Assembly (NCBI GenBank): GCA_949358305.1
Contig: OX442315.1
Coordinates: 12,860,427-12,924,426 of the forward strand
DNA from: Strigamia acuminata
Lineage: Eukaryota; Arthropoda; Chilopoda; Geophilomorpha; Linotaeniidae
DNA: 64,000 nt
Reading direction: 5' to 3'
The notes under the pieces are model-generated. The model saw nothing but the letters and a program-made list of their open reading frames with translations, made no database searches and was not told the origin of the DNA. Below, piece by piece: positions 22,662 through 61,360 of the stretch (the first letter of the stretch is position 1; each line of letters begins with the position of its first letter). A program made the translations under genes and the position numbers.

Positions 22662-23094
22662 TGATAAGTCCGTGGAGGCCAGGAAACATCGGAAAGGAGT
22701 TGAAACCAGCTTAAAATGTGCGGGGAGCTCGCACTTCGCGCCCGCCATGTTTTAATCACATGAAAGCATAAAAGCAACTGGGTTTGAGGCTAATTGGTCT
22801 CAAACCGTACAAAATATGACAATAGGACAAATCAATAGCAACAAGCATTGATTTGTTCTTTACAATATAAGTAATTGTTAACCTAGGCATAATTAACCGA
22901 TAAACAACACGGAAAACAACATTTATCGCTCTCTCAAGCAGACGACACAAGAAACATAGAATATGTGTGTTAACACACAAGAGTAGCATTAATATGCGCT
23001 ACACGGGTATCCAAAGGATGCCAACACACATATCTGCCATGCCTATCCAGAAATGCATGGGGAAACGGACAAAATAATTAATCGCATACTAATA
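22662..23094 (-). repeat. 3' LTR of Copia C2
   Basis: This 433-bp copy is identical by eye to 29085-29517. On the element strand it starts TATTAGTATGCG and ends GGACTTATCA. Confidence 0.92.
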
Positions 23095-26100: not shown

Positions 26101-27923
26101 TTGTTGGAAAGTTTCAGCCCAAATACTTCATCGGATTTCTCCAACAATGCAATCCCTTTCGCATTAAGGTGCCCAAAACGTGAATGCCAAACATCCATCG
26201 TTTGAGGTTTGTCAGGCTTAATAAGAGCCTTATTCCCACCATTATCTTTCAAACTGTTTTGCACACCTTGTTTGGAAATCTTCGCAGTCTTTGATTTATT
26301 CCCATTGTTGACTACCAGGCCAGTGTGTGTGTTATTCAAAACGTTCAATTTCTGTTTCGGACTCGCATTATTCGCAACGATCGCTGGCGCATTGTTCGCA
26401 GCAGTCACTTGCCCCATATTCGCAATTGCAGGTTTCCCTGTCTTACTCAAATTTTGGGTTAATGCAGTCTTAAAATCTAAATGAGTTAGTAATGAATTAA
26501 CAATTTCTTCACCCTTTAAAGGTGGACTAGGCTCCACTGCCGCATTCTGTTGCGCAGGTAATGCAGCAGCGTTAACAATGTGTGCAGTATTCACTTGACA
26601 ATTGACTTTATACATTCTATCACTCGTACGTGTCGCAGTGATAGAAGGCGCATCAATACTGTCATGAAAAATGGACATTTTTCCATTCTTTACAAATGTG
26701 GTAGCCCCAGCTTCATCTGCACGACCTAATGAAATCAGATTCTTTCTGAAGTTTGGAGCGTAGAAGACATTTTTCAATTGTAATTCCCGTTTCTTTTGTC
26801 CATAAAAAGATATTAATGTCACAGTCCCGATGCCCTCGATTTTCGACTTTCCTTCGCCCTGCTGGACGCTGTAACCAGTTAATGGTTTGAAGTCGGAGAA
26901 CCAGGACTTGTTGAACGAGAAATGGTCTGTCGCTCCTGTATCGACGTACCATTGCGAATCAAAGTTCGCATGTGACACCAGCGATACGACAGGAGGTTGC
27001 TCTTGATTCGAAATCGCTGCGGAGAAGTAAGAGATGGGGACGTCATCAAAAATATTCATTTGGGTGACGGCGGCCTTTTGCCGGCCTTTTCCACGTGATT
27101 TTCCTCGTGGATTGCCCCTAAACTGTCCTGTTGATCCGCCTCTTCCAGTAAGTTGCTGTTTAGGTGGAGAAGGGCAGTCGCGGGAAAAATGGCCTGTCCC
27201 ACCGCAGGTAAAACACACACGTGGGGAACTGGGCGCGGTTCCGCCGCGTCCACGTTGACCACTGCCTCCGCCAAAGAAGGCTCCAGTGTTTTCCAACGGT
27301 GTCGGGTTGGGCACTCCAAATTCGTCCCCCTTCTCGTAAAGGCGATTATACTCGCCTAAAAGTCTTTCTTTCACGGCAGCGGCCGTAAATTCCGGGTCGG
27401 GCCAGTGATACACTGTCTGTTTGACTGGCTCGAATTGGGGCGGCAAAAGGTCCAAGTACTGGAAAGCGTGGAACTCATCCGAGACCACAATCTTCACGTC
27501 GGCGAGTTGTGTAACTTTCCGGTCGACACGGGAAGTAAAGACGACCATCTCTTCATCCTCCCGTAGACGCATATCGAGGAATTCCCGCCGGAGTCGGGCT
27601 TTGCGTGCGCGCGTGGTCGGCTGGTAAGCCGCTTTCAGCGCTTCCCACACACCCTTCGCGGTTGGGTGGGCCACAGCCACGACTTGCTGTGGTTCGTTGC
27701 AAGCCAGACAAATGGTGGAGCGGGCTTTTTCTTCGCCCTTTTCGTAGTCACGAATTTCCTTTGCCGGCGATCCAGCAGGCGGTTCCTTGATTTTGCCGGT
27801 CACATGTCCCCAAACACTGTATGATTGAAGCAAAAGCTGGATCTGCATGCTCCAGGTGGGATAATTGGAGCCGTCCAGTTTGCGTACATCCTTGTAATCA
27901 TCATGTCGGTCCCAATTCGACAT
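23112..27923 (-). CDS. Copia C2 gag-pol polyprotein, full length
   Basis: This is one frame of 1603 residues from an ATG at 27923 (MSNWDRHDDYKDV). The frame stays open slightly upstream, but this Met aligns with the C1 start. Approximate residue positions: gag with a CCHC knuckle (CFTCGGTGHFSRDC) near 235; aspartic protease VDTGATDHF near 326; GAG-pre-integrase CDACSRAK; integrase HLDVWGPSP near 642, KTDNGGEF near 704, ERANRT near 740; a Pro/Glu/Asp-rich spacer; RT with ARLVAQGFKQKPG and FYVDDIVLFS near 1284; RNase H at the end (VYTDASYALD, ADSMPAIQYAKN, MTKWLSRAKL). The domain order is Copia type. All catalytic residues I can identify are kept, with no stop or frameshift. Confidence 0.95.
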   Translation of the reverse strand: MSNWDRHDDYKDVRKLDGSNYPTWSMQIQLLLQSYSVWGHVTGKIKEPPAGSPAKEIRDYEKGEEKARSTICLACNEPQQVVAVAHPTAKGVWEALKAAYQPTTRARKARLRREFLDMRLREDEEMVVFTSRVDRKVTQLADVKIVVSDEFHAFQYLDLLPPQFEPVKQTVYHWPDPEFTAAAVKERLLGEYNRLYEKGDEFGVPNPTPLENTGAFFGGGSGQRGRGGTAPSSPRVCFTCGGTGHFSRDCPSPPKQQLTGRGGSTGQFRGNPRGKSRGKGRQKAAVTQMNIFDDVPISYFSAAISNQEQPPVVSLVSHANFDSQWYVDTGATDHFSFNKSWFSDFKPLTGYSVQQGEGKSKIEGIGTVTLISFYGQKKRELQLKNVFYAPNFRKNLISLGRADEAGATTFVKNGKMSIFHDSIDAPSITATRTSDRMYKVNCQVNTAHIVNAAALPAQQNAAVEPSPPLKGEEIVNSLLTHLDFKTALTQNLSKTGKPAIANMGQVTAANNAPAIVANNASPKQKLNVLNNTHTGLVVNNGNKSKTAKISKQGVQNSLKDNGGNKALIKPDKPQTMDVWHSRFGHLNAKGIALLEKSDEVFGLKLSNNELSACDACSRAKSTRASFPPIINISTKGILEIVHLDVWGPSPVKSIGGAFYYLIMVDDFSRLMWIIIMKTKDEVLGHFKKWLTEIERLTSKKVKAIKTDNGGEFISKQWNAYTDSIGLKCMRTNTYSPEMNSVAERANRTILNGIRAFLFENNFSPTLWAELAVSVVYLKNRFPHTGLGGKTPYNVFYNKKLSLRHVKCIGALTYVHIPSQTRGGKLKERAWAGALIGYAASTRGYRIWDPKRNQVFLSKHVKILEQNFWYENLKIPPSSPSYFDSVSDSSNEDGSSSDDDSVHGGPLPEAVVPPPPIQEPAPEKAPEQVENAGVVEDVIEDIVQDVLRDAKVDEIGGAKGDDENFFSIYPDDEDEIEDPDASPQLSPRTSPTPVRRNPPRKGKDTGERTVPAGGLLPLDMSKWQRRQSVRKSGATAGQVDVYYISPKHDRIRSRVEVVRWCRDEGYEYISELFNFKDINVGFAGCCSVEPDTYEEAVTGVGKPDWERAMEDEIDIFKEREVYVEVDKSEVKDKTLLGSKWIYKLKRDHTGAISRYRARLVAQGFKQKPGIDFTEVFSPVVNFVLVMMFFCTLVVLRSWRDLHLDIKAAYLYGDLDEVQYINIPKGYRTPENQHKCWELRKSLYGLHQSGRMWYQRLHDQLIEIGFEPVLGLNCVYSLGSDAILIFYVDDIVLFSRDELAEECVLEWIQQSFEIVNLGPVTLLLGIEFCRDGGNILIHQRTYIAKLCKQYGIDPSHRVRVPGTPGTMIQKVQTGERVNSSFPYRSLVGSLLFIASRTRPDILFSVIVLSQYNETHSTRHVNMLLQVLRYLANTPNFSINLGNCQSDKLTVYTDASYALDQDKRRSFGGHIIYLGGVPVSWNCHKQTITALSIMESEFLAVVDGVKEIIWLERIFDAEVMIDGFDREIPCVYADSMPAIQYAKNRIENRANKHIDVKLHFLRDWFEKGVFRIRHIPGTLNVADIMTKWLSRAKLDALCEHIFVATN

Positions 27924-29084
27924 GGTGAAGAATTTGGTGAAAAATCGATGCACAAATCACAAAATTCACAAATTTCGGCGAAAAACACTCGAAAAATTCA
28001 CCAATTTGATGAAAACACACACTAATATTCACAATTCCGGTGAATATGCCGTGCAGAGAAGCGAAAACACCCCCAAAAATTGAAGGCGAAACAATCACAA
28101 ACTTCCCTTTGGGCACCTCAATAAGTGAGGTGAAAAACCCGAATCTGGTCGCCCTACTAGCTTCCGACCGACCCACCTGGGGGCCGCGGGACGACTAGTT
28201 GGCCACGGACAAGCCCAGACCGGAATGAGACTGCACGTAGGCGACTGCCTAAAGGGTGCAGAATAAACAAAAGGACCCCAAAACAAAAACCTTAAGAATT
28301 AACAGAGTTTCACGAAAATAGCAACTAAAATACACTTTTCAGATGTGAAGTTGGCCAATTACGGGATCCTTGCGTCGTAATTGGTTCCCACGTTGCAGTA
28401 AACGTCGGCTTCACGTTGTCTTCGCACGGAACTGGGCTGACGTGCAGACCGCGTACACACTTCCGTGTATCGGCCAAAATCGATGTTGCGTACGTCCACG
28501 CCTTCGTACCCGCTTTCCTGGATGCGAAGCACGGAAATAACCGCCTGCACACACGCTTATCGTGTGCAGGACTTCTCGGTGATCGCCGGATTAAATTCGC
28601 GAGTTGAATCTCGTCGTTCTTGACGAAAAATCCAACGAAAATGGCTGCCGGTGCAACAATCGTCGATTCGCGACGATTTCTTCGCAAAATGACGGTTTCC
28701 AGACGTTCCCACGCTGGAAAGACACCAAATGCGGCGGCTAATCGACGTATTCGTTCGTCGAAACGTTGGGCGTGCGTGTGTCGTTCCGTACACACTCGTA
28801 GACACGCTAACTTCGCAAACAAAAAAATGGCGCCGCCCGAGAAAAACTCGGTTATATCGGCGAAAAATAAACGAAATGCAATGTTCCTTACACCGTTTTG
28901 CTCCAAATTCACTGTAGAATTGTCCGCACACGTCGTCACGGCTGTCCTTCGCGAAAAATTCCGGTTTTCGGCGATACGTCTCGGCGACGATCTGCGACGA
29001 ACTTCCAACGTTCGTTTTCGCCCGAAAAACCTCACGAACTCGTCAATAACCTGTTGGCCCGATCGTGAGACCTCTGCTACCATT
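27924..29084 (-). other. 5' leader of Copia C2
   Basis: This 1.16-kb untranslated leader runs from the 5' LTR to the gag ATG. A block at about 28090-28260 is strongly conserved with the C1 leader (31075-31235), including CGGGACGACTAGTTGGCC, and may serve packaging or translation. Open frames here (for example minus 28325-29200) lack domains and are treated as chance. Confidence 0.6.
29071..29082 (-). other. Primer binding site of Copia C2 (initiator tRNA-Met)
   Basis: On the minus strand, two bases after the LTR, TGGTAGCAGAGG is complementary to the 3' end of animal initiator tRNA-Met (CCTCTGCTACCA). Confidence 0.8.
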
Positions 29085-40059: not shown

Positions 40060-40549
40060 TAGACAATAAAGTCGGGACATGCCAATCCGCCCAGGGAAGG
40101 GGGGGGGGCATAGTTATTGTCCCCATGGTCGTCTAACTCGTGGTCCCCTGGATCCGCCCTTGTTGTGCTGGGTTGTACAGGGTGGCCCACATAAAACAAG
40201 CCCGACAATACAAGGAGGATTACGAAGGGTGACTCAAAAAAATGTAAACACACGCAAAATTAAATGTGTTGTTTAATTAACGTTTCTAGTACCGCTCTTT
40301 CGTTTGGTGTTTAGTTTTTGACGATCCAAGCTTTCGTTCTCGAGATATTTGCATTTTTCATCAAATTTTTTCAGAATGTTTCAAGTTTGATGGCACTAGT
40401 CAGCTTGAATTTTGAATTTTGTGGTAATTTTGTGGATTTCTTCAGCAGTACTGGTACAGGTACACAGTACTTTTCAAAAAATACTGCAATATGTGGGAAT
40501 GGTACGGTACCTGTAACACTTTTTTGGTACCATAATTTACTTCAGCAAA

Positions 40550-40835
40550 ATCTCAAAAATGTAGCAAAATTTCACAAAATCATGCACAATTTCACAAAAT
40601 TAAGCACAATCTCACAAAATCAAGCACAATCTCACAAAATCAAGCACAATCTCACAAAATCAAGCACAATCTCACAAAATCCAGCACAATCTTATAAAAT
40701 CAAGCACAATCTCACAAAATCAAGCACAATCTCAAAAAATCTCACAAAATCATGCACAATCTCACAAAATTAAGCACAATCTCACAAAATCAAGGACAAT
40801 TTCACAAAATCAAGCAAAATCAAGCAAAATCACGT
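40550..40835. repeat. 20-bp minisatellite
   Basis: About 14 units of CAAGCACAATCTCACAAAAT with some variants. It creates a spurious open frame (repeats of TKSSTISQN type) that is not a gene. Confidence 0.85.
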
Positions 40836-40855: not shown

Positions 40856-40940
40856 TCACATATTTCAACTGTACGTTACACATATTTTAACTGTACTTTT
40901 CACATATTTTAACTGTACTTTACACATATTTTAAGTGTAG
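40856..40940. repeat. 22-bp minisatellite, first block
   Basis: Four diverged units of ACACATATTTTAACTGTACGTT. The array continues at 41112 after a 167-bp insertion. Confidence 0.75.
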
Positions 40941-40944
40941 GTTA

Positions 40945-41111: not shown

Positions 41112-41328
41112 GGTTACACATATTTCAACTGTACGTTACACATATTTTAACTGTACTTTTCACATATTTTAACTGTACTTTACACATATTTTATGTGTAG
41201 GTTACACATATTTTAACTGTACGTTACACATATTTTAACTGTACGTTACACATATTTTAACTGTACGTTACACATATTTTAACTGTACGTTACACATATT
41301 TTAACTGTACGTTACACATATTTTAACT
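41112..41328. repeat. 22-bp minisatellite, second block
   Basis: About ten units of GTTACACATATTTTAACTGTAC. The same unit and the same right flank occur at 60793-61360. Confidence 0.9.
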
Positions 41329-41754
41329 AAAGAAAGGATAGTTCCCAAATTTATACATATTAATCAATAAACAAATACATTCTCAAATACAACTAACGAA
41401 TGTACAACTAATGATTTTATATGTAAGTAGTGCAGGGTGAGCCAGAGAGACCTGACGATTTCGAAAATGTAATTACTCTGTAACTAACTAAAATTTTTAT
41501 TTGAAACCATTACAGAGGTTTTAAAATGCTATTTTTATGTCTGGAAAATTATATCACTCAGATGCCTTTCTTGAATGAATTGCAGTTTGCAAGTATTTTT
41601 GCTGTTCTTAGATCTGTGCAGAAAAATGATCTAGCATGGCTAGAGATGTGCAGAAACCAGCCATGGTTATGTGAATATGAAGGTTAAGCTGACTAGATAA
41701 AGTGACACTAAATTTTCACTGCTCTTAGGTCTTTGACCCTGATCGATTTTTACA
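41329..41754. repeat. Dispersed repeat attached to the 22-bp array, copy 1
   Basis: From TAACTAAAGAAAGGATAG to CTGATCGATTTTTACA it is shared with copy 2 (61361-61521 plus 63113-63402). It contains AGTGCAGGGTGAGCCAGAGA. The unit array plus unique tail suggests a non-autonomous element, perhaps Helitron-like; no ends are proven. Confidence 0.65.
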
Positions 41755-42691
41755 TATCGTAAAGCGGGGTGACTTTGTGCCACTTTTTGTTTCAGATTTC
41801 AATAACAACCGTAGAAATAATCATATTATTATGAAAGTTTAATGGAAGGTGTATATTTGTATGTGCTAAACAGTGGCAAGTTTAAAAAAAATTATATCCT
41901 GTTGCTACAACCAACCCCAATATTTTTTTATTCCTCAAGATTTCTTTCTAAATTGTCTCTGTAAACAGTAGTATCCATTATTTATTCGATGGATTGGAGA
42001 TTTCCAACCTTTCGCATCCCCAAACCAACACTGAACTATTTTTTCAGGGCAGTCACTTCATAAAATAATTTTTTTCTCTAGAACTAATGGATAGATTGTC
42101 ATAAAATTTTAGGTGAACAAAGCAGAATGTTGGACCAGTATTCAGTTAAAATTTCATTGGTTTTCCTCCTTTTATTCTTGAGATGCAGTCATGAGATTCA
42201 AATGTTGCGATTGTTAACTTAGTTTTGCCCCACACTACAATACTTCGCAGATTGAAGGCAGCCATACGATCCAGAGGCCATCCAACAAAATACTAAACAA
42301 AATTATATGTAATGTCCTATTTTCAAGTCGAAATAAAGGAATTGTGTTGCACTTTCTAAACTTATGAATATTTTTTCAACTTTCTAAACTTTTGACACAA
42401 GTTATGTTTTGAAAATCTCGATTTGTAACTAAACTACCGGTATATAACTAAATATATGTAACTATAAGTTATTTTAGATGAAAAATAATTGTTTTATTCA
42501 AATCTGATGGTATAAATTGGTTTTGCTCAACTTTTAAGTCATATTTTTGGTGTTATTCACAAAGTGAGTGAATTTTTCACTCACTTTCTAAACTTTTGAA
42601 ATGTAGTTGTATAATGCAAGACTGTTATAAGTGATATGCCAGCAGGGAGGATCAAACAGCAGAAAATTATAAAATTGCTCTCATGATGTTC
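41755..42691. other. No gene recognised; fragment duplicating channel TM2
   Basis: This is AT-rich sequence. At 42607-42651 there is a near-copy of 42746-42785, the part of the DEG/ENaC gene encoding its last pore helix (minus strand reading AGISLITVLHYT), a remnant of an extra duplicated piece. Otherwise nothing is seen. Confidence 0.5.
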
Positions 42692-45600
42692 TTAGGTTTT
42701 TGAACCTGACTGATTAAAATAAACGTGTTTTTTGACAAAATTGACAGTATAATGCAAGAGTGTTATAAGTGATATGCCAGCAGTGACACACAAACTGTTG
42801 CCAATATCGCAGAAAAGAGCAGCGATTGAGTAATTTTGAACTTCGATCACATTTTCTACAACATTGCTGTGCATAAAAAAAAGTAGAGCAAATGGTTCTT
42901 TAGGTCCACTATTGAGTGCAAAACTTTGAACTGTGAACACATTTTGTTGACACGGTCGAGTACAGGAGCAGATTTTATCTAAATTTATTGCCATTTCAAT
43001 GTATTTTTGAAGACTGCTCTTTATATTTTCCAATGAATCACAGGCCACCATATCGAATAAGGTGTCATTCAGGAAAGGCAACCTAAAAATATATTTAATT
43101 GATTTAACATGGAGGTACAGACAAAATAGTACGTATATTACCGGCACAAGTTTGCTTCTTTAATTTTTGAATCCAAACAGTTCTTACGGCAGTCGTTGAA
43201 TTCAGTTTTGTCTAAGCATGGATTGGTTGTTAAATTTGTTTTAAGAATCTAAATTTGACAATTTTATCAAAGCATTGACCGTAAATGGAGAGAAGGAACT
43301 ATTTACAGTTGAAAGTCGAATGTCATTTATTAGATTAGCGGGTCCAGGAGCGAGGATTACTCTTAAAGGATTATATCGTTCAAAACCTGAAGATCCGATG
43401 TCACTTAGAAATACCTAAATTCGTGTTTTAATTATAATTTTGAATTAACTAAAATTAACTTTCACCTCATAGTAACATTTTTTGCATTCCAATATTTGTT
43501 CCTTATTGTCTCTTCCACTAAACGGAATAGGAAACAGTGTGGCTAATCCAGCGTAGTCAACAACCCCTGTGTAAAAGAAGAGACTGTTCATTTATTTTGT
43601 CCATTCTAAACTGATTAGACAAATTTCAATTGTGATTAACAAGTCTGTCAACTTTGATTTTCAAAAAGTATATAGTATCTCTTAATTATTCTAGTGTGAC
43701 TATAAACATACTTTACCAAATTGATAGTGATAACAGTTTCCCAAATGTGTTGGAATTATAAGACTTTGGTTTGGAGTCAAAATATTTGCGTTCACTTGCT
43801 TCTAAAAATACATACGGTATCAGCATTTTTTATTTCTCACACATTAAATTTGATTTTACTGTAAAAGTACCGTAAAAGTATTGGGCATGGGTTTATCTTG
43901 TTTTTCAAATCTGGCTCAAAAAGCGTATACCAGCCTATTTTAAATACATTTTAAATATTTTTATAAACATCTGAATATAACACCATGGTGTTGTATTTAA
44001 AAACAATACAAAATCCGAATATAGCACCATGGGGATATATTTGCATTTTACACCATGGTATTATAGCTGAAGTGGTGTTATATTCGAATTTTTGCTCAAT
44101 GTTTACAAAATTGCCATTTCTAGCAAAACTCGAATACAACACCATAGTGTTATTTTCGGGTGAAAGACGGCAGTCCCTTTACAGCATTGTGAACTAGTAA
44201 AACCGGATTTTATGGTAAGAATTTCACAATTTACCTTTATAGCAATTAAATACTCCTGAAGTATGACAATTTGCGATATATTCCACAGATGATCCAAAGT
44301 GAATTTTGGTTTGAAAAACCATAAATCGACCAATTGCACATCGCACCAACTCCTTAAATTGCTACTGTTCCGAGCAATATTTTCCTTGAAAAACATTTTT
44401 TTCATGAAAGAAATTCGTGGAGACGGAGCACACATAGTAAGTGACGGAAAAGCTAATTTATCTACCGACTCAACCGAGACCAGATTGCGCGGTGGATATG
44501 TGAAATAATAAAAAATACGATTTTGAATCATGAAAAGGCCGAAAATTATACAAATCAGAAAAATTGCATTTTTCAGATATTTCTGCCCGCGTGATTTCAA
44601 TAATTTCGTTTCGTTTTGAGCTTGAGTGATGCATTCTTTGTATATCTTGTCTAATAGCAACACTTGTTTGGTTTTTATCTTCTTTTGGTGGCGCAGTTTT
44701 CTCACAGAATTCACAATTGCGTTCAAAATTTCGACAATTGATAATAAGGATAGACCCAAGTAAAGTCCCAAATTGCCACCGATGTCCACGAATAAGCTGA
44801 TTAAATCGTATTGCAGACGTTCATTTAACAGCATTTGTGTGTTGTCGCCTTGGATTGCAAATATTGTATCATTTAAGTCTTCACGTTCTTCTGCAGTCAA
44901 GAGGATTTCAAATGTATTTTGGGTGCAAACAGTGGGACATTTACAAAGACTGCTTAAGTATGCCGTAGGAATTAGAGTGACGTTGAAAGTTACAATGAAA
45001 TTCTTTACTGAATCGTGCCAATTGCTAGAGTTGCATGGAGGAAGATTGACACTCCGAGGCGTAAATGGAAATCTGTTAATTTTTTTTAAAAATAAAATAT
45101 CTATTAGTGGAATATGTTGTTGCAGCACAGTGTGCAATAAAGGTGCTGCTGTTAGAATATGGACAGCTGCAACAAAGGTACAGTACTTCCAGGGGTTAAA
45201 GTAAGCCGGAACTCCCCAGAACATCGTCCTGGTATAAGATTTGGAAACAGAAAGCTTTTCCAGTAAAAGATATGGAAAGAAAAAGTCATAAAACAATTTA
45301 GTTTTTTGCCCATATCTCTGCAATGGGGCCAGATATGCAAATTCCAACCAGGGGAATCGATTTTTTGGGTCATTTTACGTCAAATCAGCACGTTTTTGGC
45401 ACTTTTTCAATTTTGGCCATGTTAGCTTTTGACTTGTGTCTACTTTGAAAATTGTGATTTTCTTAAAATTTTTTAGTACAAAAGATTTGAGGAGTAGTTA
45501 TTTTTAGACTAAATAAATGTTGCTCTACAAGTTTACAATCGGAAATTTCTGTCTATCTCTAACGGTTTCCTAGATAACAGCATTGGAGTCCATCCTTATT

Positions 45601-48600
45601 ATGGTAAAAATCCCACTCTAATCACCTCTTTCCCTTCATCCTCTCCTTCTAACACCACTAACTTGCCCTTTTCGTCGTCGCATGACCAATAGGTCATGCA
45701 AAAACCGTGATCTTTCGGTCTGTTATCTCAATGCCCGTTCTATTTTGCCCAAAATTAATGACATTGCCGACCTAGTGAATATTCAATCCCCTGATCTCGT
45801 TACTGTAACTGAGTTTGAACAAGGAGAAGACAGGTTTTATCACCTTTAGTCGACCCCCCCGGGCGGTGACCCCCTACCCTGTTAATACTGTCACAGTTTT
45901 AGGCTTGATCCTTGACCCTCACCTCACTTTTGCCCCTCACATCCGCCACATCACCAGGTTTCTCTCCTGCACAGCGTACATCGTGAAACACCTGAGAAGT
46001 GTATTATCTCGCACAGAGATGATATCCTATATCCGCTCAAAGGTGCACCCCACCATTTTGTATGCCTCCCAATTTTGGAACTCCTCCCCAGACCGCTTCA
46101 AGCATCAACTTACGACTGCTTACAACCGGGTACTCCGTGTCGCCTTCAAGTTTCATGACAAGACCCACGTAACTCCCCTTTATAACAAACTGAACATCTT
46201 GACGCTGAACAACTTACTGCTCCTGAATGACTTATCATCGCTGGCTGATGTCATCCGGAACCCAGACCATCCTGCACGAGCTGTGGTTGAATACTACCAC
46301 ACTGACTTGGACACCTGCACTGCTCGACGCCACAAATTTGAAGTCACCGCCGAGATCTCTACCTATCTTGGGAAGACCTACCCTTATCGGTGTATGTCAC
46401 TCTGGAACAATCTTCTGTTTGATGTCAGATCCTCGGTCTTTGACTGTTCTGCGTCTCGTTGCCATTTCCATTGCAAGCACATGCGTAAACGGCTGCGCAT
46501 TCATATTTTAAGAGCTCAAAACACCGCTTAATCCCTTTTATCCACAATGTATTTACTCCATTGGAGTGTTTGAATTTAATAAATAAGTAACTTTCAAATA
46601 ACCTTGAAGGAACATCCCAAGGTCAAATTTCGGGTCACCAAAAGATTGCCCCACCCAACTTTAGTACTTTGCCATCATTAGATTAGATGCATTGTCAGCA
46701 CTTTCGGAAATATTTTGTGAAGTGACAGACTTTTCATTCACCCTGTACAATGGACATACCGGAAAATGTGATGTAAAATATATCTAGGTTATAATATATT
46801 TCAAATATATTGGTTATACATTGTAAATATATGTAAATATGTCGACTATAAGTAGAATATTTCTGCAATATATCACTTTTTCGTGTGGATTTTCTCATTT
46901 CACACTGTTTTCGTACTAAGTGTCATTGGTATGTCGATCTAACATATCGTTAATATGATAATCCGACCATATTCCGATCAAAGTATTAAAATTTTGCATG
47001 TACGCAGTTTTCAAATCACACAAAATCTGCTACATACAACTGGAGTTAACTTTTCCAAATAAGTCTGCCTTTTCTGGAAAACTGGTTCGTTTACATGATC
47101 AGTTTTCCAGAAAAATGAAAATCGCATTTTTACTTATCTGGAGTGCATATAAATTTTGTAAGCTAAATAATATACAGTAGTACTTCAGATGGGCCCTGAT
47201 AATACCTGCATTGTGTCAATTCTTTAATTCTTTTTGCGACGCAATTTCTGTAACATTTGTCAAATTTGTTGATGCTATTGGTGCATGGTTTTCCAGGCTT
47301 ATCGATAAAGTTGTACTGGAAGAAAACAAGGAAACAATTATTTTTTCTACTTTTCTTTTTTACGTAATGTTTACCTTTCTCAACGAGAGTTGCACTTTCA
47401 GATTAAGACTGCTTGGTGTTGGCATGATGTAATAATAGTCAATTTTATTTTTAATGATAAACTAATAGAAAAATAAAATATCGTAGTGTTGCTTTTGTTC
47501 ATTAAGTTTCGTTTATGAATCTTACCATTGGAATACAATATTTATTTCTTCGTATCGTGAGTTTCAATGGTGTTCTGGATACGTTGGTTTCTGAAATATA
47601 ATTTCAGTTTGATGTGTATTACACTTGATAAAAGAAAAAAATTGACGATTGCTTACTTGACGGCTCAAAAATGGTACATTGTCCCATCAAGGATGATTCC
47701 AATTTTATTGTAGCATTCTTAATGAAATATTAAATTAGAAATGTACACAATAAACTCTCAACTTGTGTACTAGTCAAATCCATATATCCTCATACTCCTG
47801 TAAAATTAAAAAAAATAAAATATTTGGATTGACCTAAAATTAAATCTAGTTTAAATTAAACCTTGAAATTTTAAGCAGTTAAATAGATACATCTGAAGAA
47901 AGTACACACAAAATTTCATACCAATCGGGCTTAAAATAATAAAACTAGAAGCATATTTCAAAATAACATTTGATTCATATATCCTCATACCAGCTTGCAC
48001 ATGGTACAAATATCTTCATACTCTGTATTTTAATGTAAAAATTTTTACATTTACACAAAATTTTTATGTGAATGTGATCATATTAGTTAAAATAGCATGT
48101 AACATTTCAAATATAGATCATTTGTCAGTAAAATGGCACCAGGAAAGACTGTTTTCTGCACAAATACATGCCTGAAATGACAAAGTTGCACATTGACCGG
48201 GGTATTTTCCTTTTAAAACTTATAGTATTCCCTTAAGAATAGCAGTGTATACTTTAATTTTATCTTTTATCATATTGCTACAGGATAATGAGTTCTTATG
48301 ACCTCTGAAAAAACTTTATATCTGATTCATCATGGCCTGAAAATTCCATCCAAATGTGCCGTAGAAATGCCAATCATTTTTTCACCTATTTGCATATATC
48401 ATCAACTTCCAGTCATGCCAATCACTTCTCCTACATGTAAATTGGTGTTTTATCCAAAAATGTGACAAAGTACATTAATACATCAAGAATATTGTGTTTT
48501 TCATGTGATGATCAAATGGTCAATTTTTATTTTTCTCTGCTAGTGGAGCTCTGATTCCTGTGTAATTGTAAGACACATAAAAATAGTACAAGATGAGCCC

Positions 48601-49597
48601 GAAAGCACTATTTTATCTGACATTTTCCATGCTGCTAGCCTAGCAAAGTTACCAGGGCCCAAATCTGTCATTTGGTTCTGGTCAATGTGCAACTTTGCCA
48701 ATTCAGGCATGTATTTGTGCAGAAAACAGCCTTTCCTGGTGCCATTTTACTGACAAATGATCTATATTTGAAATGTTACATGCTATTTTAACTAATATGA
48801 TCACATTCACATAAAAATTTTGTGTAAATGTAAAAATTTTTACATTAAAATACAGAGTATGAAGATATTTGTACCATGTGCAAGCTGGTATGAGGATATA
48901 TGAATCAAATGTTATTTTGGAATATGCTTCTAGTTTTATTATTTTAAGCCCGATTGGTATGAAATTTTGTGTGTACTTTCTTCAGATGTATCTATTTAAC
49001 TGCTTAAAATTTCAAGGTTTAATTTAAACTAGATTTAATTTTAGGTCAATCCAAATATTTTATTTTTTTCACTTTCACAGGAGTATGAGGATATATGGAT
49101 TTGACTAGTATTCTCACATGCTTGAATTCAAAATCCTTCAAGGCACTCGGGGTGTCTGTAAAGTTCCAAATTGAATTGTAATCTGCATTTGGGTTGTATT
49201 GCACGATTTTCAAATAGGGCATTATTCTAGTAAAATCGTCTCCCCAACCTTGTTTTTCTAAAAGTTTAAGGTTGTAATCACTTTCAAATGTGCAAATCTG
49301 CATGTCTGGCATTTGGAATAAAGATGTATAGTCAAAATAAATATCGACTGCTAAAGGATATGTGTAGTAAAAGGAAATTCGTTCCACTGTTTGGTATAGA
49401 CAAAGCGATGAGCAGCAAATGAGCAGAATGGCCAAGATAAGGCGTAAGTAAATCGAGTTGTTGGAGTCGAACAAAACGTTAAACTCGTGTGGCAATTCGA
49501 AGGCACTTTCCTTTTCTTGGTTTGAAATGTGTCTTTGAATAGAATGACGAAGTGCTCTTTGAGCCGCATTTGATGTACTTGTATGTTTGCAGCTCAT
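42692..49597 (-). CDS. Tandem two-subunit DEG/ENaC (pickpocket-like) channel, 11 exons
   Basis: Predicted exons (minus): 49118-49597, 47657-47717, 47526-47590, 47375-47461, 47206-47315, 44235-45072, 43717-43801, 43466-43566, 43307-43414, 43142-43248, 42692-43082. All junctions are GT/AG and all phases agree, giving 810 residues. Subunit 1 has TM1 near residues 51-72 followed by SFYYTYP, a Cys-rich ectodomain (PCTNSINKFDKCYRNC) and TM2 with DIGGNLGLYLGLS near 366-375. A 50-residue linker without Met or stop leads to TM1 of subunit 2 near 437-455 (FYYFTYP), a second ectodomain (PCLDKTEFNDCRKNC) and TM2 with DIGNSLCVTAGIS near 783. The filter-type G-x-S is GLS and GIS. Exon 6 carries TM2 of one and TM1 of the next. 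The other introns fall at equal places and phases in both halves. The family forms trimeric amiloride-type cation channels. An upstream exon may exist, since the frame is open to an acceptor at 49618. Confidence 0.85.
45640..46531 (+). pseudogene. Internally deleted LINE (endonuclease start joined to RT end)
   Basis: This lies in intron 5 of the channel gene, opposite strand. From 45682 the frame reads CYLNARSILPKINDI and SPDLVTVTE, the start of an apurinic-type LINE endonuclease. At about 45813 it jumps, in a different frame, to the end of a LINE reverse transcriptase (EKTGFITFSRPP, VTVLGLILDPHLTF, then KVHPTILYASQFWN) ending in a stop at 46529-46531. The catalytic core is missing, so this copy is dead. 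It resembles Jockey/CR1-type elements; the clade is not certain. Confidence 0.75.
46600..46755. repeat. Dispersed repeat ending CACCCTGTACA, right part
   Basis: Shares an order of short blocks (ACCTTGAA...AAGGTCAAATTT, CACCCAACTT, GAAATATTT, CAGACTTTTC, CACCCTGTA) with 49680-49925. A left part resembling the same repeat lies at about 45490-45600, so the LINE probably inserted into this repeat. Confidence 0.45.
47770..49108. mobile_element. Foldback transposon with 431-bp inverted repeats
   Basis: Arms 47770-48200 and 48678-49108 are near-perfect inverted copies, starting CTAGTCAAATCCATATATCC, with TA on both outer sides. The 477-bp centre has no transposase frame. TA flanks suggest mobilisation by a Tc1/mariner-type transposase; the family is unassigned. 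It lies in intron 1 of the channel gene, only 7 nt from the exon 1 donor. Confidence 0.85.
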
Positions 49598-49618
49598 TTT
49601 GACATCCAATTGGTAGAC

Positions 49619-50219
49619 CTGAAAAATTTATATTTTTTTACAAAACATTTAACTTAAGGTGACTAACAAGTAAGATAAATTGGATAGTACTAATTTGATG
49701 GTGCTGCTCTACAACTTTCTTATTGAAAATTTTGCTCTAACCCGATTGGTTTAGAAGTTAGCAAGTGAATGACCTTGAAAATGGCCTTCAAGGTCAAATT
49801 TGATAAAATCATTGGATTTCTCTCACCCAACTTCCTATATGATCGCTTCATCAAAGTTGACCTAGATGCAATTGCTCAGGAAATATTTGGAGGGAAACAG
49901 ACTTTTCTTCCACCCTGTATATTTGTAATTTAGATAGTGCTTCTTTTCTGCGTTCCGTATCTATTTCAAGATTAAAAATTGATCTTACTGTCTAGCTATG
50001 ACTGTAAACATATGTGCGTGTCTTGTTTGGATATATTGAAACACCATTAACTATGATTACGTCCAATCTAACAAGAAGCTCTCAAAACACTTGCTTTGGC
50101 CATTAGTCATAATTGACTTCGATTCTTGTGCTTAGCAACTGTTTTAAAAGGACAAAAACTGTAGAAACATTGCACACCCAATAGATAGATGTGAAAAAGT
50201 GTAAAAGCATGATTTAGCC
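49619..50219. other. Upstream region of the channel gene; dispersed repeat
   Basis: No gene is visible. 49680-49925 is a second copy of the repeat ending CACCCTGTATA. A promoter or 5' noncoding exon of the channel gene could lie here but cannot be pointed to. Confidence 0.4.
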
Positions 50220-51029: not shown

Positions 51030-54000
51030 ATGGATGCCCTCTATCAGTTACGTGCTCAACAAGCCACGTCCAGAGAAGGAGCGAAACGTCTTGTGAACAC
51101 GGTAATTGTTGAATTGGTCGCCACTGCACCAGAAGCCCCACACGTTGAAACGATTAAAAAACCAGTTGCTCGTGAAGAGCGAACAACTGACAGCGCTCAA
51201 CGATAAGATGATTCTTACTCGTGCGGAATTGGAAACAGAAGAAGGCGACAATGAAGAGTACCGTGAGAAGATAATTGACGCTTTAACTGATATTGACTGT
51301 AAAGTAGACAAATTACTACGACCACCACCACCAGTTATACCCCCAGCGAACCCCGGCAGTACCTCGAACAACTCAGGCAAAGGGAGGATTAAACTACCAA
51401 AATTAGTAATGTCGAAATTTAGTGGGAATCCTGTTGGTCGAATTTTGAGCTGAGTGTCCACAACAACGGTTCACTTACCGCAAAAGCCAAATTTGTGTAT
51501 TTGAATTCAGTACTCGAATGTACTGCAGCAACAGTTGTCCATGGTCTCAAAATCAGCTATGAGAACTATGTGGAAGCTGTAACCTTACTCCAAAACCGTT
51601 TTAGAAGGAAAGAAGTCATCGTCAATGCTCATATTCAGACTTTGATGAAGTTGAAAGCCGTAAAATGAGTTAGCGACCTCGTTGAGCTACGAAAACTCTA
51701 CGACACTTGCTAAATACACATTCGAAGTCTCGAGAACGAACAAATCGATATGACCACATTTGGAATTGTATTGTGTCCATTGATACGAGCTGCAGTGCCA
51801 GATGTTATTGCACTAGATTTTTCACGCAAAAACAAAGAGAACACTGTTGTGATCTCAAATGTTCCTTTTATTTGGAATATTTGGAGTATAAGAAATTAAT
51901 AATTTAATCTATTTAATGTGTTAAATAAATTGTTTTACAGTCCCTTTAATTATTTAGAAATAGTAGAAATTGGTAATTTAAGGAATCAATTTATTTTAGT
52001 GTTTTTAATGAATTATTTGTTAAAATAATTACATATTTTTGCTTGCTTGTGCAAATAAAATACTCATTTTATTTGCAATTGCCAAGTGCTTTCGGCTGTT
52101 AAACAGAAGCCGTTAGGACTGCCATGGCAACCTAACTGCCAAATTGGGGGGTTGCTATGGCCAGCTCCTAATTTGCACCGTTGCTGGGCACGAAGTGTGC
52201 CAGGTGCATGCCACGCATGCGCACTCGGCCGATTTTCCGGCCAAAGTTTGAGTAATAAATTCGTTTATTACTCACTCTTTGCCTCCTCCTCACACCGTTC
52301 ACACCGACACAGCTTTGTTCAAACCAAAAACACTGTTTTGTCCGTGACCCGTGAGATATTGCAAAGTTTCAACCGATTTGCTTGATGCCAATACGCATCA
52401 AGTGACTCCTTCCCGGACGACGAAGTCGACGTGCAACGGACCGAGCAACCGTTGTTTCCGCCGCCGCCCGAAGATAAACGTACACACGCCATCGTAGACC
52501 GACGCCCGGAATACGCCAAGCCGACGAGGGACGACGCTCGCCAAGCCGACGAAACCTCGACGCTAGCCACCGACGACGGTAATTCGAGTGATATACGTTG
52601 AAGACCGACGCCAGCCAGCCGCCGAGTTGACGAGGGACGACGCGCGAAAGCCGACGAAACCTCGACGCTCGACCTACTGACGACGGTAATTTGCCGAGAA
52701 GAAGCGGACACCTGAAGACCGAATTCGACAGTGCGAACCACGCCGTGAGTCTTCAACGGAGAATTTCCCGTTTCAACTCGAGGGTTCACACCTCACGATT
52801 CCGCTCCCGTTTGTGTGCATTTGCACCAATTTTCACGGCGATCCGTTGCCGCCATTTTCCAAACTTATTGTTTCCGCGCGCGCGAACAATTCCATTGTTC
52901 TCGCGCCTTTCTCTTCTTTCCTTGTTTAACTTTAGCAATATTCACTTAATTATTTATTTATCCCTTGTATTCATATTACTCCTTAATTTTAACATTAATA
53001 AAACTGTTTATCCTTTTTTAAATTACTTGTTATTATTGCATTTGCTACCAAAAAAACCCCTAGACACAAAAACCACAGCCAAAAAACCCCTAGACACCAA
53101 CTTAACTGCCAAACCCGATAGAAGACCTTTTACGGCATTCAACTGCTTTCCACAGGTTGAATACCGGGACCTTTTGCATTGAATTAGATTAATATTCTGT
53201 GCAATTATTATTATTATAATTTTGGGAACATCCAGGAACGCAACAACACTCACGATATGAAATTGTTCTTAGAATTTCTCAGAACTGAACTGGAGTTACG
53301 AGAAGAACACGTAGCCGTGAGCGACCAAACAGAGGAACAAGCCACCGAGATGTTTGTCGACTACAAGAAGCCGACACATAACGACAAGCCAGCTTACGCA
53401 AGTGCGTTGACCACCAGCATTTCATTGTCCAGCTGCGTCTTCTGTGAAGATGCATCGCACAAGAAGGAAGATTGTCCGCTCAATATTCAAGAACGATTGA
53501 AGCAATGCATGGCGAAACGAACGTGCTTAAGATGTTTGGGTAGCAAACATGGCATGCAGCTGTCCCCAGAAAAATAAGTGCGTAAATTGCGAGCGGTTTC
53601 ACCATATCCTGTTGTGCGAGGCACCGACTACCAAACCAGAGGTTGTTATTGTGTCAACAGTGACAGCAGCAGCGATTACAGCAGAGAACACTGACTTGTT
53701 TTTGCAAGTATTGATGACAAATGTGGAATCGAACTGTAAAACCAAGGCCGTGCAGTGCATGTTTGATGGCGGAAGCCACAGGTTGTTCATTAGCCAGAAG
53801 CTAGTGAAGGAGCTTGATGCCCAAGTAGTGGGTGAACAAGAAATGAAGATTTCCGGTTTTGGCGATTCAAACACTGAAACCGTTTGTCGTCGTCTAGTTA
53901 ATGTAACTTTACGAAATATTGCCGATCATAATAAGTTTGTTGATTTAGAACTGATCAAAGTGCAAGGATAACACACTCCATCGCGAAACAGTCCGGTCCA

Positions 54001-55360: not shown

Positions 55361-58300
55361 TTATTCCGCCTGCGAACGCCAGTTTTTTGCCATGTTTTCA
55401 AATTTAGCGGTGAATTCCTTCATGATTCTCTCTTGTTCTTTAGCGAGCATTTTCAGCAATTCTTCTCGCTCTGCAGCTTTATCGTCGGCTTTTTGCTTTG
55501 CTCGTTCAGGACAATCCTGTCGCCAATGGCCGTCCTCCTGGCAGAAGTTGCAGGGACCGCTTTTTTCTCCTTCTCGGCTGACTGGTCTCTTCGTATACTC
55601 CTTGTAACAAGAAGACGAGATCAAATCTAAATAGTCTTCCGATCTTTCCCCAGCACTAGACGTCTGGGTTTGGTAAGCGTTCCCAGGAGGCGGTATCGGA
55701 TTTGTACTGTGATGATTCTTTTTTGACGGGAGTGGTTCTATACTTCCGTTCAGATAGTTTTGTGACTGGAGCAGCTTAGCGGAGTCTATGCTTCGCTCTT
55801 GGATTCTTTGTTGTCTGGCTACTCCCAGAGTCCGTTCTTCCTTTGTCAGAGCTTCGTTATACCGAGCGTTTGCTTCGGTGTGTTTCTTCTTGACAAACGA
55901 AAAAATGGCTGTAAAGCTGTCTCCCCTAGGGGCGTTCATGTCCCGTAAGACTTTCGTCGCGATTGGGTTCAGGCCCTGCTCGAAGAGAGCCTTTTGCGCG
56001 TGTTGATTAAATGGCTTGTCCATTTCTCGAAACATGCTATCCGCTCGCTGCACATATTCTCTCAGAGTTTCCCCGGGAGCTTGTTGCATGGAGCTTACTC
56101 TTTTCTGGATTTCTTGGCTCGTCTCGCCATATTGGTTGTGGAACTTTATAACAAAGTCCTCCCAACTTCGGGGCTGGACATTGTTATACCAGATTCTGGC
56201 TCGGTGTATGAGCATTTCCGGTACTCCGCGCGCGACCATCTCGTCGGGTTCCGCTCCCAGTCGGTTTATCGTCAGGGCGACCTCGTCGAGAAAGAAGTTT
56301 CCGGCATTCCATGATCCGTCAAACTTGGTTAGTCATAGAGTCGTCCATTTGATGTTGTTATCCTTGCGGGCGTACAACCATCGGTCTGCAGAATATCGTT
56401 TCAACAATCCCTCGCTCTGATCGTCCTCTTCGGTATCTTGGCTGTGACTTTGTTGGAATTTTCGGTCAACTACCTGAAGGAGTTCGTCTTTCATTGCTTG
56501 AAGTTTGTCGCTTAGCGAGTCAGTCTCACCAAGCAACGGCAACGATCGAGTGTTGTCGGAGGGAAGACTTGGAAAATGATTGCCATGTCTTGTAGATCCG
56601 ATTTGGTTTGGTTGGAACAGAGTCTGTCCTCGTAACCCCATAGGATTCGGGTTGTCCGTAAGGTCTTGCGCTACCGTTGAGTTATCGGGTTTCGTTTTTT
56701 CGGGAGCGGAGGTCTGACTCAATTGGGTTCCGGGCGGTATCAAGTTGTCTAGTCGAGTCCCCGTGGTTTTTCCGTCTACCTTTTTGATGAAGACATAGGC
56801 GTTTCTCCCAGCGTAGGCTTCGGCGGCGTGCTTCTTCTCGAGGTGGTTCTTAACCGCGTTGATCTCCTCGAGCGTTGGCATGGCTGATTTATTACGGCCC
56901 GCCTCGTTTTGTATTTGGTTCTTTTGATTTATACATCGAATCAGCTCGGAGTTGGAGTTGGGGTCACTTGGGTGCGTGTTACTGGTTTGGCCAGTTTTCA
57001 TCGCAAACGAATTCTTTAGTGCCCATGAATCGGCACCCTGATTATTTCGCCTATTTTGTATAAACGCCTCGTAAAGTTCCCCTTGAACCTCGTCCGATTC
57101 GTTTACTATACTGTCTAGTGCGGTAACTCGAATACTGTCGTGGGAGGCTAGCGAGTCGATGCTTTCGCTGTCCGAGGCTTGGTCGTCCTCTTTTTTGGTC
57201 GGTGGTCGAGTTGTCTCAACGCGTCGTCGTTTATCTTCACCGTTTGAGGAATTCTCCGCTGGTCGTTTATCCGTCTTTTGGTTAACAAGATCGATTATCC
57301 TGCTCAGTTCTTCATACGGGTCCTTATCCTGGTCGATCTCTATGCCGTGGGCGCACGCTGCTCGAGTCACTTCGATTGCTTTTGCGACCAGTTCTCTCGG
57401 GTCTGGGGTTCGTGGCGACTGGCTTCGGGAATTTCGATGGGAGTCGGATTGAGAGTGTCCGCTTGATCCGCTGCCCTGTGGCTGGGTTTGATGACCCTTT
57501 GCCATTTCTCGTTCTACGAGTCTTTGTTTCCTGAGCAATTCTCGGGTCAACTCTTGTTCTATTGCCATTTGTTTTTCTTGGCTCTCTTTAGCGGCGGCCA
57601 TTTGTTTTGCGTGGCGCTCTCGGGCAATTTCTTGCTCTACGTTGGCCATTTTCGCTTGATGTTCTTTTTCCAACTCGCGAAACATGGCAGCTTTTCGTTC
57701 CTTCAAGGCGTCTATTCAAAAATTTCACGTTCCATTTCGGCTCGTCTTTCTGCCACTTCTCGAGCTATTTCGCGTTCGAATGCGGCTCGCCTATCTGCCG
57801 CTTTTTCTCGCCTTGCCTGATTTGCTCTGGCCTGTTCGTGTAATATTGCGGTTTGCGTTGTGACCGCGCTATTGATGAGGGTCGTTTGGTCTCTTATGGA
57901 AGTCGACCGTGGCGAATTTGGTAATGAAACCGATGATATTGGTGAACGATGAAACGTTAATTGTTTCTGGGGCGTCAATTTTTTGCGCTGCCTGTTAGCC
58001 TGATCGATTTGGGCTGTTTTATCGTCTGCAGCTTTGTTAATACGATTTACTAATTTGTTTTGACGGTCGTTTTCATTATCCAGTTCGCTGTTGTTTGGGT
58101 CATCTGGATTGTTGAAACTATGGACAGGCGAGTCCTGTCCGTTTTCTTTGATCAGATTTTCATCGTCATCGAAATCTTCATCGTGGTCGCTTTGAATCGG
58201 TGATTTCCGTTCTTGGCTTTCGTCGTGTTCAAATTCATTTTCGTGAATTCGATCTTCCGGCGTCAAGAGTGGATCGTGGACCGTTCCATCCCGACGTTCA

Positions 58301-60222: not shown

Positions 60223-60790
60223 TGTTAATGTTTCGCTCCTTAATTATACTAGTAGATGGCGCTATATATTTAATCCCACGATTCATTTGCCGGTGCATTG
60301 CAAAGTACTGCAGAACCGAACGGAAGGACAAGCAGCCTACGTAAAAGGATAAAAACCGAGGCATCAATCGGAATCGGGACCGGAACAATGCTGACGAGAC
60401 GAAACATGGCAGCATGCGAGGGTTTTAAAGAGGGACAGTGGTTGGTAAACTTTTTGACCGAAATTGGAGTGGCAAAATTATGCAAAGCACCATTTCTAGT
60501 TCATAGTGATAACACATCAGCAATTGCACTAGCAAATGGAGTCGTTAATCGACACATTAAACTGAGATACTACTTAGTACTTTGTAAAAGATGCAATCGA
60601 AAAAGAAAAGTTTAGTTTAAAATTTACAGGAACGGATAGCATGTTGGCAGATTTTCTCACAAAGCCGCTGAGCCACGAGGAATTGCTGAAAAATGTAAAG
60701 AATTGGTTTAGTGGATGGTTTTTAGGCTAAATTTTAGATCAATGATTAATCGCAGGAAGGGGAATTGTTAATGTTTTGCTCCTTAATCAT
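60223..60790 (+). pseudogene. Copia relic: LTR starts and RNase H end
   Basis: TGTTAATGTTTCGCTCCTTA at 60223 and its copy at 60766, after a GGAAGGGGAA purine tract, mark the starts of two LTRs. Between them remains the end of Copia RNase H: PFLVHSDNTSAIALANG, then after a frameshift DSMLADFLTKPLSHEELL with a stop near 60730. Everything before RNase H is deleted, and the second LTR is cut by the 22-bp array. It is unrelated in detail to C1/C2. Confidence 0.75.
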
Positions 60791-60792
60791 AC

Positions 60793-61360
60793 GTTACACA
60801 TATTTTAACTGTACGTTACACATATTTTAACTGTACGTTACACATATTTTAACTGTACGTTACACATATTTTAACTGTACGTTACACATATTTTAACTGT
60901 ACGTTACACATATTTTAACTGTACGTTACACATATTTTAACTGTACGTTACACATATTTTAACTGTACGTTACACATATTTTAACTGTACGTTACACATA
61001 TTTTAACTGTACGTTACACATATTTTAACTGTACGTTACACATATTTTAACTGTACGTTACACATATTTTAACTGTACGTTACACATATTTTAACTGTAC
61101 GTTACACATATTTTAACTGTACGTTACACATATTTTAACTGTACGTTACACATATTTTAACTGTACGTTACACATATTTTAACTGTACGTTACACATATT
61201 TTAACTGTACGTTACACATATTTTAACTGTACGTTACACATATTTTAACTGTACGTTACACATATTTTAACTGTACGTTACACATATTTTAACTGTACGT
61301 TACACATATTTTAACTGTACGTTACACATATTTTAACTGTACGTTACACATATTTTAACT
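60793..61360. repeat. 22-bp minisatellite, about 26 units
   Basis: GTTACACATATTTTAACTGTAC repeated almost without variation over 568 bp. Much more uniform and longer than the block at 41112-41328, with the same right flank. Confidence 0.95.

What the first reader, a model, noticed from the sequence alone, without database searches (positions are those of the whole stretch)
42692..49597. Single gene encoding two DEG/ENaC channel subunits in tandem
Eleven exons join in consistent phase into 810 residues with TM1-ectodomain-TM2 repeated twice. Exon 44235-45072 runs from the first TM2 (GLYLGLS) through a 50-residue linker into the second TM1 without a stop or a Met. The remaining introns fall at equivalent positions with the same phases in both halves, pointing to internal duplication and fusion. 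DEG/ENaC channels are trimers of single subunits as far as I know, so a covalent dimer raises a stoichiometry question (for example a dimer plus a monomer, or a six-domain ring).
Basis: partly seen in the sequence, partly recalled or inferred. Interest (0 to 1): 0.9.

Follow-up and report, generated by a model that had tools for sequence, protein, structure and literature searches.

The report
Two sodium-channel subunits in one gene
A single intact-looking animal gene reads straight through two complete sodium-channel subunits joined by a short linker, which, if its RNA confirms it, would be a natural linked pair in a channel family otherwise known to assemble from three separate pieces.

Summary
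Eleven minus-strand exons (42692-49597) with GT-AG borders join into one 810-residue frame, intron phases 0,1,0,0,2 in each half. Each half alone passes Pfam's DEG/ENaC cut-off (61.4 and 36.8 bits against 23.6); best solved relatives are centipede BRTNaC1 and PDPNaC1. Ten extracellular cysteines align between the halves. Exon 44235-45072 is open for 279 codons from the first TM2 through a 47-residue linker, without Met or stop, into the second TM1.

One correction: the halves are no more alike (22%) than either is to the centipede channels (21-24%), and a four-sequence tree is unresolved. Fusion of long-diverged neighbours is as likely as internal duplication.

The second half's pore motif is altered (DIGNSLCVTAGIS against DIGGNLGLYLGLS). 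I infer a natural tandem dimer in a pseudo-trimer.

Not shown: transcript, relatives, organism. Three protein searches and one viral-contig scan found none; the genome search did not complete (15 calls). Linker codon statistics are not decisive.

The parts
49118..49597 (-). Exon 1: N-terminus, TM1 of half A (residues about 47-72), start of ectodomain (residues 1-160)
   Evidence: GT donor at 49117; in-frame stop is the 11th codon before the Met
47657..47717 (-). Exon 2 of half A
   Evidence: GT-AG, phase 0 in, phase 1 out
47526..47590 (-). Exon 3 of half A
   Evidence: phase 1 in, phase 0 out
47375..47461 (-). Exon 4 of half A
   Evidence: phase 0 in and out
47206..47315 (-). Exon 5 of half A (PCTNSINKFDKCYRNC...QCR), counterpart of exon 10
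   Evidence: aligned to exon 10 with the same intron position and phase at its end
44235..45072 (-). Exon 6, fused exon: last exon of half A (to TM2 GLYLGLS) + linker + first exon of half B (TM1, FPSLTMC)
   Evidence: 279 codons open; other frames 9 and 24 stops
44583..44723 (-). Linker, residues 385-431, 47 residues, net charge +9, no Met, no stop
   Evidence: codon statistics inconclusive
43717..43801 (-). Exon 7 of half B
   Evidence: phase 0 in, phase 1 out; weak donor (0.0 in a rough score)
43466..43566 (-). Exon 8 of half B
   Evidence: phase 1 in, phase 0 out
43307..43414 (-). Exon 9 of half B
   Evidence: phase 0 in and out; weak donor (-0.4 in a rough score)
43142..43248 (-). Exon 10 of half B (PCLDKTEFNDCRKNC...LCR)
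42692..43082 (-). Exon 11: rest of half B ectodomain, TM2 with altered pore motif DIGNSLCVTAGIS, C-terminus, stop
   Evidence: AATAAA at 42498 downstream, but such signals are common here (26 of AATAAA/ATTAAA in 41500-49700)
47768..49110 (.). Foldback insert in intron 1: two 431-nt arms, 98% complementary, ending 7 bases from exon 1
45809..46531 (+). 240-codon open frame in intron 5, looks like the tail of a non-LTR reverse transcriptase (recalled resemblance); no Pfam match

Best explanation
This is one gene of the DEG/ENaC family that encodes two complete subunits, A (residues 1-384) and B (432-810), joined by a cytoplasmic linker of about 47 residues: a natural tandem dimer. SHOWN from sequence: one frame, two ASC domains, membrane segments for TM1 and TM2 in each half (the last one weak by hydropathy), equal intron phases in both halves, a conserved cysteine frame in both, and no stop or start in between. 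INFERRED: the transcript runs through exon 6 and the protein is not cut. A and B then sit side by side in one ring, and the third place is taken either by a separate DEG/ENaC subunit (my first choice, about 45%) or by one domain of a second dimer with the spare domain left out (about 30%); a four-domain or six-domain ring is less likely. Linking fixes A:B at 1:1. B changes the gate and selectivity positions of the pore: Asn776 where PDPNaC1 has its lower gate Gly375, Cys779 where it has the selectivity residue Gly378. I therefore expect an asymmetric pore with altered ion selectivity, or one in which B is a regulatory partner. The gene most likely arose when a deletion joined the last coding exon of A to the first coding exon of its tandem neighbour B.
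For:: 11 exons, GT-AG, 810 residues, phases 0,1,0,0,2 twice; 5 of 5 phases equal, 0 of 200,000 random placements as good; each half passes PF00858 alone; both halves match BRTNaC1 (E 1.5e-16, 7.9e-16) and PDPNaC1 (8.9e-16, 4.3e-9); exon 6 open, no Met from 348 to 449; 10 ectodomain cysteines aligned in A and B; linker charge +9, as expected on the inner side (the N-terminal 46 residues, also inner, have 0); no AATAAA/ATTAAA on this strand between 46580 and 43834. Literature: trimeric and tetrameric artificial ASIC1a constructs were functional, and a pH0.5 is tabulated for the dimer construct too (PMC4529235, abstract and passages); ASIC concatemers were made with 19-residue linkers added between subunits (PMC10329638, passages), so 47 residues look enough. 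PDPNaC1 gates at Asp372 and Gly375, selectivity at Gly378, no canonical HG motif (PMC12714832, passages and section 9); I counted these residues onto the and 42 alignments by hand.
Against: No transcript or protein evidence. No relative with the same fusion: 0 hits in 3 protein searches (E limits 0.001, 0.01 and 10) and in 1 viral-contig scan, though even plain DEG/ENaC relatives were absent, so those collections say little. Linker codon usage does not separate it from noncoding DNA: 7.6% of intron windows and 21% of stop-free shuffles score as high, both other frames score higher and one of them is also open; against that, 57 of 153 windows of the gene's own coding sequence score below it. 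TM2 of B is weak by hydropathy (best 19-residue mean 1.60, not above my 1.6 cut-off) and its pore motif departs from consensus, so B could be drifting. Ten AG sites lie in 44540-44830, and real acceptors of this gene are weak too, so an alternative first exon for B cannot be excluded; 4 of 10 real donors score below 2, so the lack of strong donors there is weak evidence. I cannot test the assembly. The single-sequence fold of exon 6 was worthless (mean pLDDT 43.8).
Confidence: 0.64

Rival explanations
1. Two tandem genes that share exon 6 by alternative ends: A uses an internal donor or poly(A) site in or after exon 6, B uses an alternative promoter and a first exon in intron 5 spliced into an acceptor inside exon 6. 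Proteins are separate, ordinary subunits.
For: B has homologous first-exon content inside exon 6; 10 AG sites exist in 44540-44830, and the gene's real splice sites are themselves weak in my rough scoring (4 of 10 donors below 2); the linker alone is open in 3.3% of shuffles and its codon usage is inconclusive.
Against: Needs unobserved exons or ends on both sides. No donor scores above 2 in 44540-44830 and no AATAAA/ATTAAA lies between 46580 and 43834 on this strand. The frame is kept exactly across the join, which separate genes would not need.
Confidence: 0.16
2. Recent fusion allele or decaying copy: the locus is a chance in-frame fusion that is not maintained, with B already drifting, beside intact single-subunit genes elsewhere in the genome. 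(Not exclusive of the fusion being real.)
For: Altered pore motif and weak TM2 in B; a foldback insert with nearly identical arms, presumably recent, 7 bases from exon 1; a TE-rich window.
Against: 810 sense codons without a stop or frame break over 11 exons, all splice sites canonical, cysteine frame kept in both halves.
Confidence: 0.12
3. Assembly artefact: reads of two tandem copies were collapsed so that the last exon of A abuts the first of B.
For: Tandem paralogues are a known cause of collapse (general knowledge); reads are not available here.
Against: A and B are only about 22% identical as proteins, so little shared DNA is expected on which to collapse; the join is in frame and the window has no N.
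Confidence: 0.05
4. One polypeptide is made but then cut in the basic linker, so that mature channels are ordinary trimers of free A and B in fixed supply. (Shares the fused gene with the best explanation.)
For: The linker is rich in K/R (net +9); in artificial ASIC concatemers smaller products were seen (PMC4529235, PMC10329638, passages).
Against: No protease site was tested; the linker should face the cytoplasm, where furin-like enzymes do not act (general knowledge).
Confidence: 0.1

Closest known systems
BRTNaC1 (broad-range thermal receptor 1, centipede; PDB 8YMR and relatives)
   Same: Best solved match of both halves (E 1.5e-16 and 7.9e-16); similar subunit size (431 against about 400 residues); cysteine-rich ectodomain, DIG motif, TM2.
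   Different: Single subunit per chain; has an HG pair where A has HE (a weak stretch of 11.4 bits) and the linker before B has none; pore DIGGVLGLFLGIC against B's DIGNSLCVTAGIS.
PDPNaC1 (centipede proton-dissociation sodium channel; PDB 9JF7, PMC12714832)
   Same: Second match of both halves; 421 residues; homotrimer of two-TM subunits; also lacks a canonical HG motif.
   Different: One subunit per gene. A keeps its gate and selectivity glycines (G367, G370); B has N776 and C779 there.
Artificial ASIC concatemers (PMC4529235, PMC10329638; passages)
   Same: Two or more DEG/ENaC subunits joined end to end through a linker; functional.
   Different: Made in the laboratory from well-known subunits. 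Here the joining is in the gene and the halves are strongly diverged.
Natural repeat fusions in other channels (two-pore-domain K+ channels, TPC, four-repeat Nav/Cav; recalled, not searched)
   Same: Subunits of a multimeric channel fused in one chain.
   Different: In those, the repeat number divides the ring size of four. Two repeats do not divide a trimer, which is what makes this odd.

Membership tests
DEG/ENaC (ASC, PF00858) | Matches the family profile above the curated cut-off | tested here: met
   A 61.4, B 36.8 bits, cut-off 23.6; whole protein 87 bits
DEG/ENaC (ASC, PF00858) | Two TM helices per subunit flanking a large ectodomain | tested here: met
   TM1a, TM2a, TM1b clear; TM2b only 1.60 by hydropathy, not above my cut-off, but aligned to TM2 of BRTNaC1 and PDPNaC1
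DEG/ENaC (ASC, PF00858) | Conserved cysteine-rich ectodomain | tested here: met
   10 ectodomain cysteines aligned in A and B; 9 Cys columns common to A, B, BRTNaC1 and PDPNaC1, one of them in TM1
DEG/ENaC (ASC, PF00858) | TM2 selectivity motif G-x-S after D-x-G-G | tested here: inconclusive
   A: DIGGNLGLYLGLS, met. B: DIGNSLCVTAGIS, the G-x-S kept, the second G of DIGG and the Gly378 position changed
DEG/ENaC (ASC, PF00858) | His-Gly motif before TM1 | tested here: not met
   A has HE aligned to BRTNaC1 HG (weak stretch, 11.4 bits); no HG in the linker. Not universal: PDPNaC1 lacks a canonical one
DEG/ENaC (ASC, PF00858) | One subunit per polypeptide, trimeric channel | tested here: not met
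   Gene model holds two subunits; assembly state itself not testable here
Natural tandem-dimer DEG/ENaC | One mRNA and one uncut protein | not testable with these tools
   No RNA or protein data held
Natural tandem-dimer DEG/ENaC | Conserved in relatives | tested here: inconclusive
   searches found no relative of any kind; own genome did not complete (15 calls)

The most novel reading that the evidence does not exclude
A naturally concatenated, strongly asymmetric DEG/ENaC dimer in which A carries the standard pore and B an altered gate and filter. It would either force a fixed A:B plus third-subunit heterotrimer, or assemble as two dimers in a four-domain pore, an assembly state argued for ASIC1a from crosslinking although ASIC1 crystallised as a trimer (PMC4529235).
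Probability: 0.4. Interest if true: 0.8.

Novelty: new variant of a known kind. Interest (0 to 1): 0.58.

Why it matters
Channels built as rings of four have repeatedly fused their subunits into chains of two or four (recalled). A family of trimers with two subunits in one chain does not divide evenly, so it must either recruit a third subunit, leave a domain out, or change ring size. A natural case would give a direct test of DEG/ENaC stoichiometry, which has been argued from artificial concatemers and crosslinks, and would show how a pore tolerates fixed asymmetry. The listings of my paper searches on this point (titles and abstract starts of the part listed, not full texts) showed no natural tandem DEG/ENaC. 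Three of them (17, 28, 39) used the term 'deg enac', which appears not to match the usual spelling with a slash, so they count for little. Automatic two-ASC-domain gene models may exist in databases as suspected annotation merges (recalled, not checked).

Tried and rejected
Relatives: whole protein over residues 1-810 (E up to 0.001), alignment of both halves (E up to 0.01) and half A alone (E up to 10) against the 5.8-billion-protein set gave 0 hits; in viral contigs 0 of 121 pattern matches were confirmed. The window's genome was asked for PF00858 fifteen times and never answered. Genome contigs was not scanned (bacteria and archaea only).

Structure: AlphaFold of the fused exon alone failed (mean pLDDT 43.8).

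Other DEG/ENaC genes in the window: tblastn gave none beyond this gene; the best match outside it had E 0.15 at 56414-56491, taken as chance.

Linker coding test by codon usage: no decision. Rfam: 0 matches. Age of duplication by a four-taxon tree: unresolved.

The rivals are not all exclusive, so the odds add up to more than 1.
Full report
WHAT IS THERE. The gene lies on the minus strand of a transposon-rich window. They join into 2433 nt, 810 residues and a stop, with GT-AG at all ten introns. An in-frame stop is the 11th codon before the start Met, with no other Met between.

TWO SUBUNITS. Split at residue 402, each half passes the Pfam cut-off for ASC (PF00858) by itself: 61.4 and 36.8 bits against 23.6. 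Against solved structures both halves find BRTNaC1 first and PDPNaC1 next; ASIC chains follow far behind, and for A also two FMRFamide-gated channels. Most of A's score comes from its second part (residues 213-394); its first part matches BRTNaC1 only weakly (11.4 bits). Both channels come from the same centipede (PMC12714832, passages) and have 431 and 421 residues, about the size of each half. A and B align by BLASTP at 27% over 185 columns, E 9e-13. Ten extracellular cysteines line up between A and B, and nine cysteine columns, one of them in TM1, are common to A, B, BRTNaC1 and PDPNaC1. The half-B ectodomain is thus not a random remnant.

THE FUSED EXON. Exon 6 (44235-45072) holds the end of A and the start of B. 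Its coding frame has no stop in 279 codons; the other frames have 9 and 24. 0 of 2,000 shuffles of the exon were open. The linker between TM2 of A and TM1 of B is residues 385-431 and has neither stop nor Met; the first Met of half B is 449, inside TM1. Its net charge is +9, as expected for a cytoplasmic stretch, although the N-terminal 46 residues, also expected inside, have 0. By itself the linker is weak evidence: 3.3% of shuffles are open; its codon score is reached by 7.6% of intron windows and 21% of stop-free shuffles; both other frames score higher and one is also open; 57 of 153 windows of the gene's own coding sequence score below it. The argument rests on the lack of any end for A or start for B. 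No donor scores above 2 in 44540-44830, but 4 of the gene's own 10 donors score below 2 as well. No AATAAA or ATTAAA lies on this strand between 46580 and 43834, while 26 such signals lie in 41500-49700 overall. A different first exon for B, spliced into one of the 10 AG sites there, is not excluded.

INTRONS. Phases are 0,1,0,0,2 in A and again in B. Positions differ by -3, -1, +11, -3 and 0 columns in the pairwise alignment and by -3, -4, +9, 0 and 0 in the four-way one. 0 of 200,000 random placements matched phases and offsets as well. I placed the borders by eye with the homology in view, so the position match is partly circular. The large offset lies in a gap-rich stretch.

HOW OLD. On 316 gap-free columns A and B are 22.2% identical, while A or B against the centipede channels is 20.6-24.4% and the two centipede channels are 24.7% identical to each other. 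The AU test rejects none of the three four-taxon trees (p 0.60 for A+PDPNaC1, 0.47 for A+B, 0.09 for A+BRTNaC1). So the data do not show that A and B are sisters. The shared introns may be a family trait. The event to explain is the joining of two long-diverged neighbours, and a deletion between the coding part of A's last exon and that of B's first would do it.

PORE. In PDPNaC1 the gates are Asp372 and Gly375 and the selectivity residue is Gly378; changing Gly378 to Ser or Gln raised sodium selectivity (PMC12714832, passages and section 9). Counting by hand along the and 42 alignments, A keeps D364, G367 and G370, while B has D773, N776 and C779. Both keep G-x-S (GLS, GIS). A has HE where BRTNaC1 has HG (in the weak stretch), and the linker has no HG; PDPNaC1 also lacks a canonical HG. 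TM2 of B is the least hydrophobic of the four (1.60). B may be a modifying partner in the pore, or may be drifting.

MECHANISM. Trimeric and tetrameric artificial ASIC1a constructs were functional, a pH0.5 is tabulated for the dimer construct too, and the same paper argued from crosslinking for a tetramer (PMC4529235, abstract and passages). ASIC2a/3 concatemers were built with 19-residue linkers added between subunits (PMC10329638, passages). A linker of 47 residues can therefore plausibly join neighbours in a ring. I put AB plus a separate third subunit first (about 45%), two dimers with a spare domain second (about 30%), four- or six-domain rings after that. These numbers are judgement.

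LIMITS. The protein and viral collections returned nothing, not even ordinary DEG/ENaC proteins, so absence there means little. The own-genome search did not complete (15 calls). The fold of exon 6 alone was useless.

SURROUNDINGS. Intron 1 is 1400 nt, of which 47768-49110 is an insert with 431-nt arms, 98% complementary, ending 7 bases from exon 1. Without it the intron would be about 57 nt, like most others of this gene (51-66 nt for six of the ten). Intron 5 (2133 nt) holds a plus-strand open frame resembling a reverse-transcriptase tail (recalled), with no Pfam match. Elsewhere the window holds gypsy-like, copia and gag frames.

Noticed in passing
19213-22710 (-) and 23115-27956 (-): Two copia-type pol frames each carry a methyl-CpG-binding domain (PF01429, E 7e-10 at residues 585-638 and E 5e-9 at 1033-1075) between the integrase/SH3 part and the reverse transcriptase. 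A targeting module in a copia element would be notable; the 12 of 19 papers listed by one search showed nothing on it.
   Followed up: partly
47768-49110: Foldback element in intron 1 with 431-nt arms, 98% complementary; its end lies 7 bases from exon 1, so the RNA could form a long hairpin beside the splice donor.
   Followed up: partly
60790-61360, 41113-41328, 40857-40944: A 22-bp repeat (TACGTTACACATATTTTAACTG) in 26 copies with 100% matches, with less regular arrays of the same unit on the far side of the gene.
   Followed up: no
45809-46531 (+): Open frame of 240 codons in intron 5 resembling the tail of a non-LTR reverse transcriptase (recalled), without a Pfam match.
   Followed up: partly
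2042-6181 (+), 10887-17185 (+), 55364-56332 (-), 53531-53968 (+): Two gypsy-like pol frames, gag frames, and a DUF1758 peptidase fragment: much of the window is retrotransposon sequence.
   Followed up: partly
40544-40832: Tandem array of about 20 bp, 15 copies, 82% matches, next to the 22-bp arrays.
   Followed up: no
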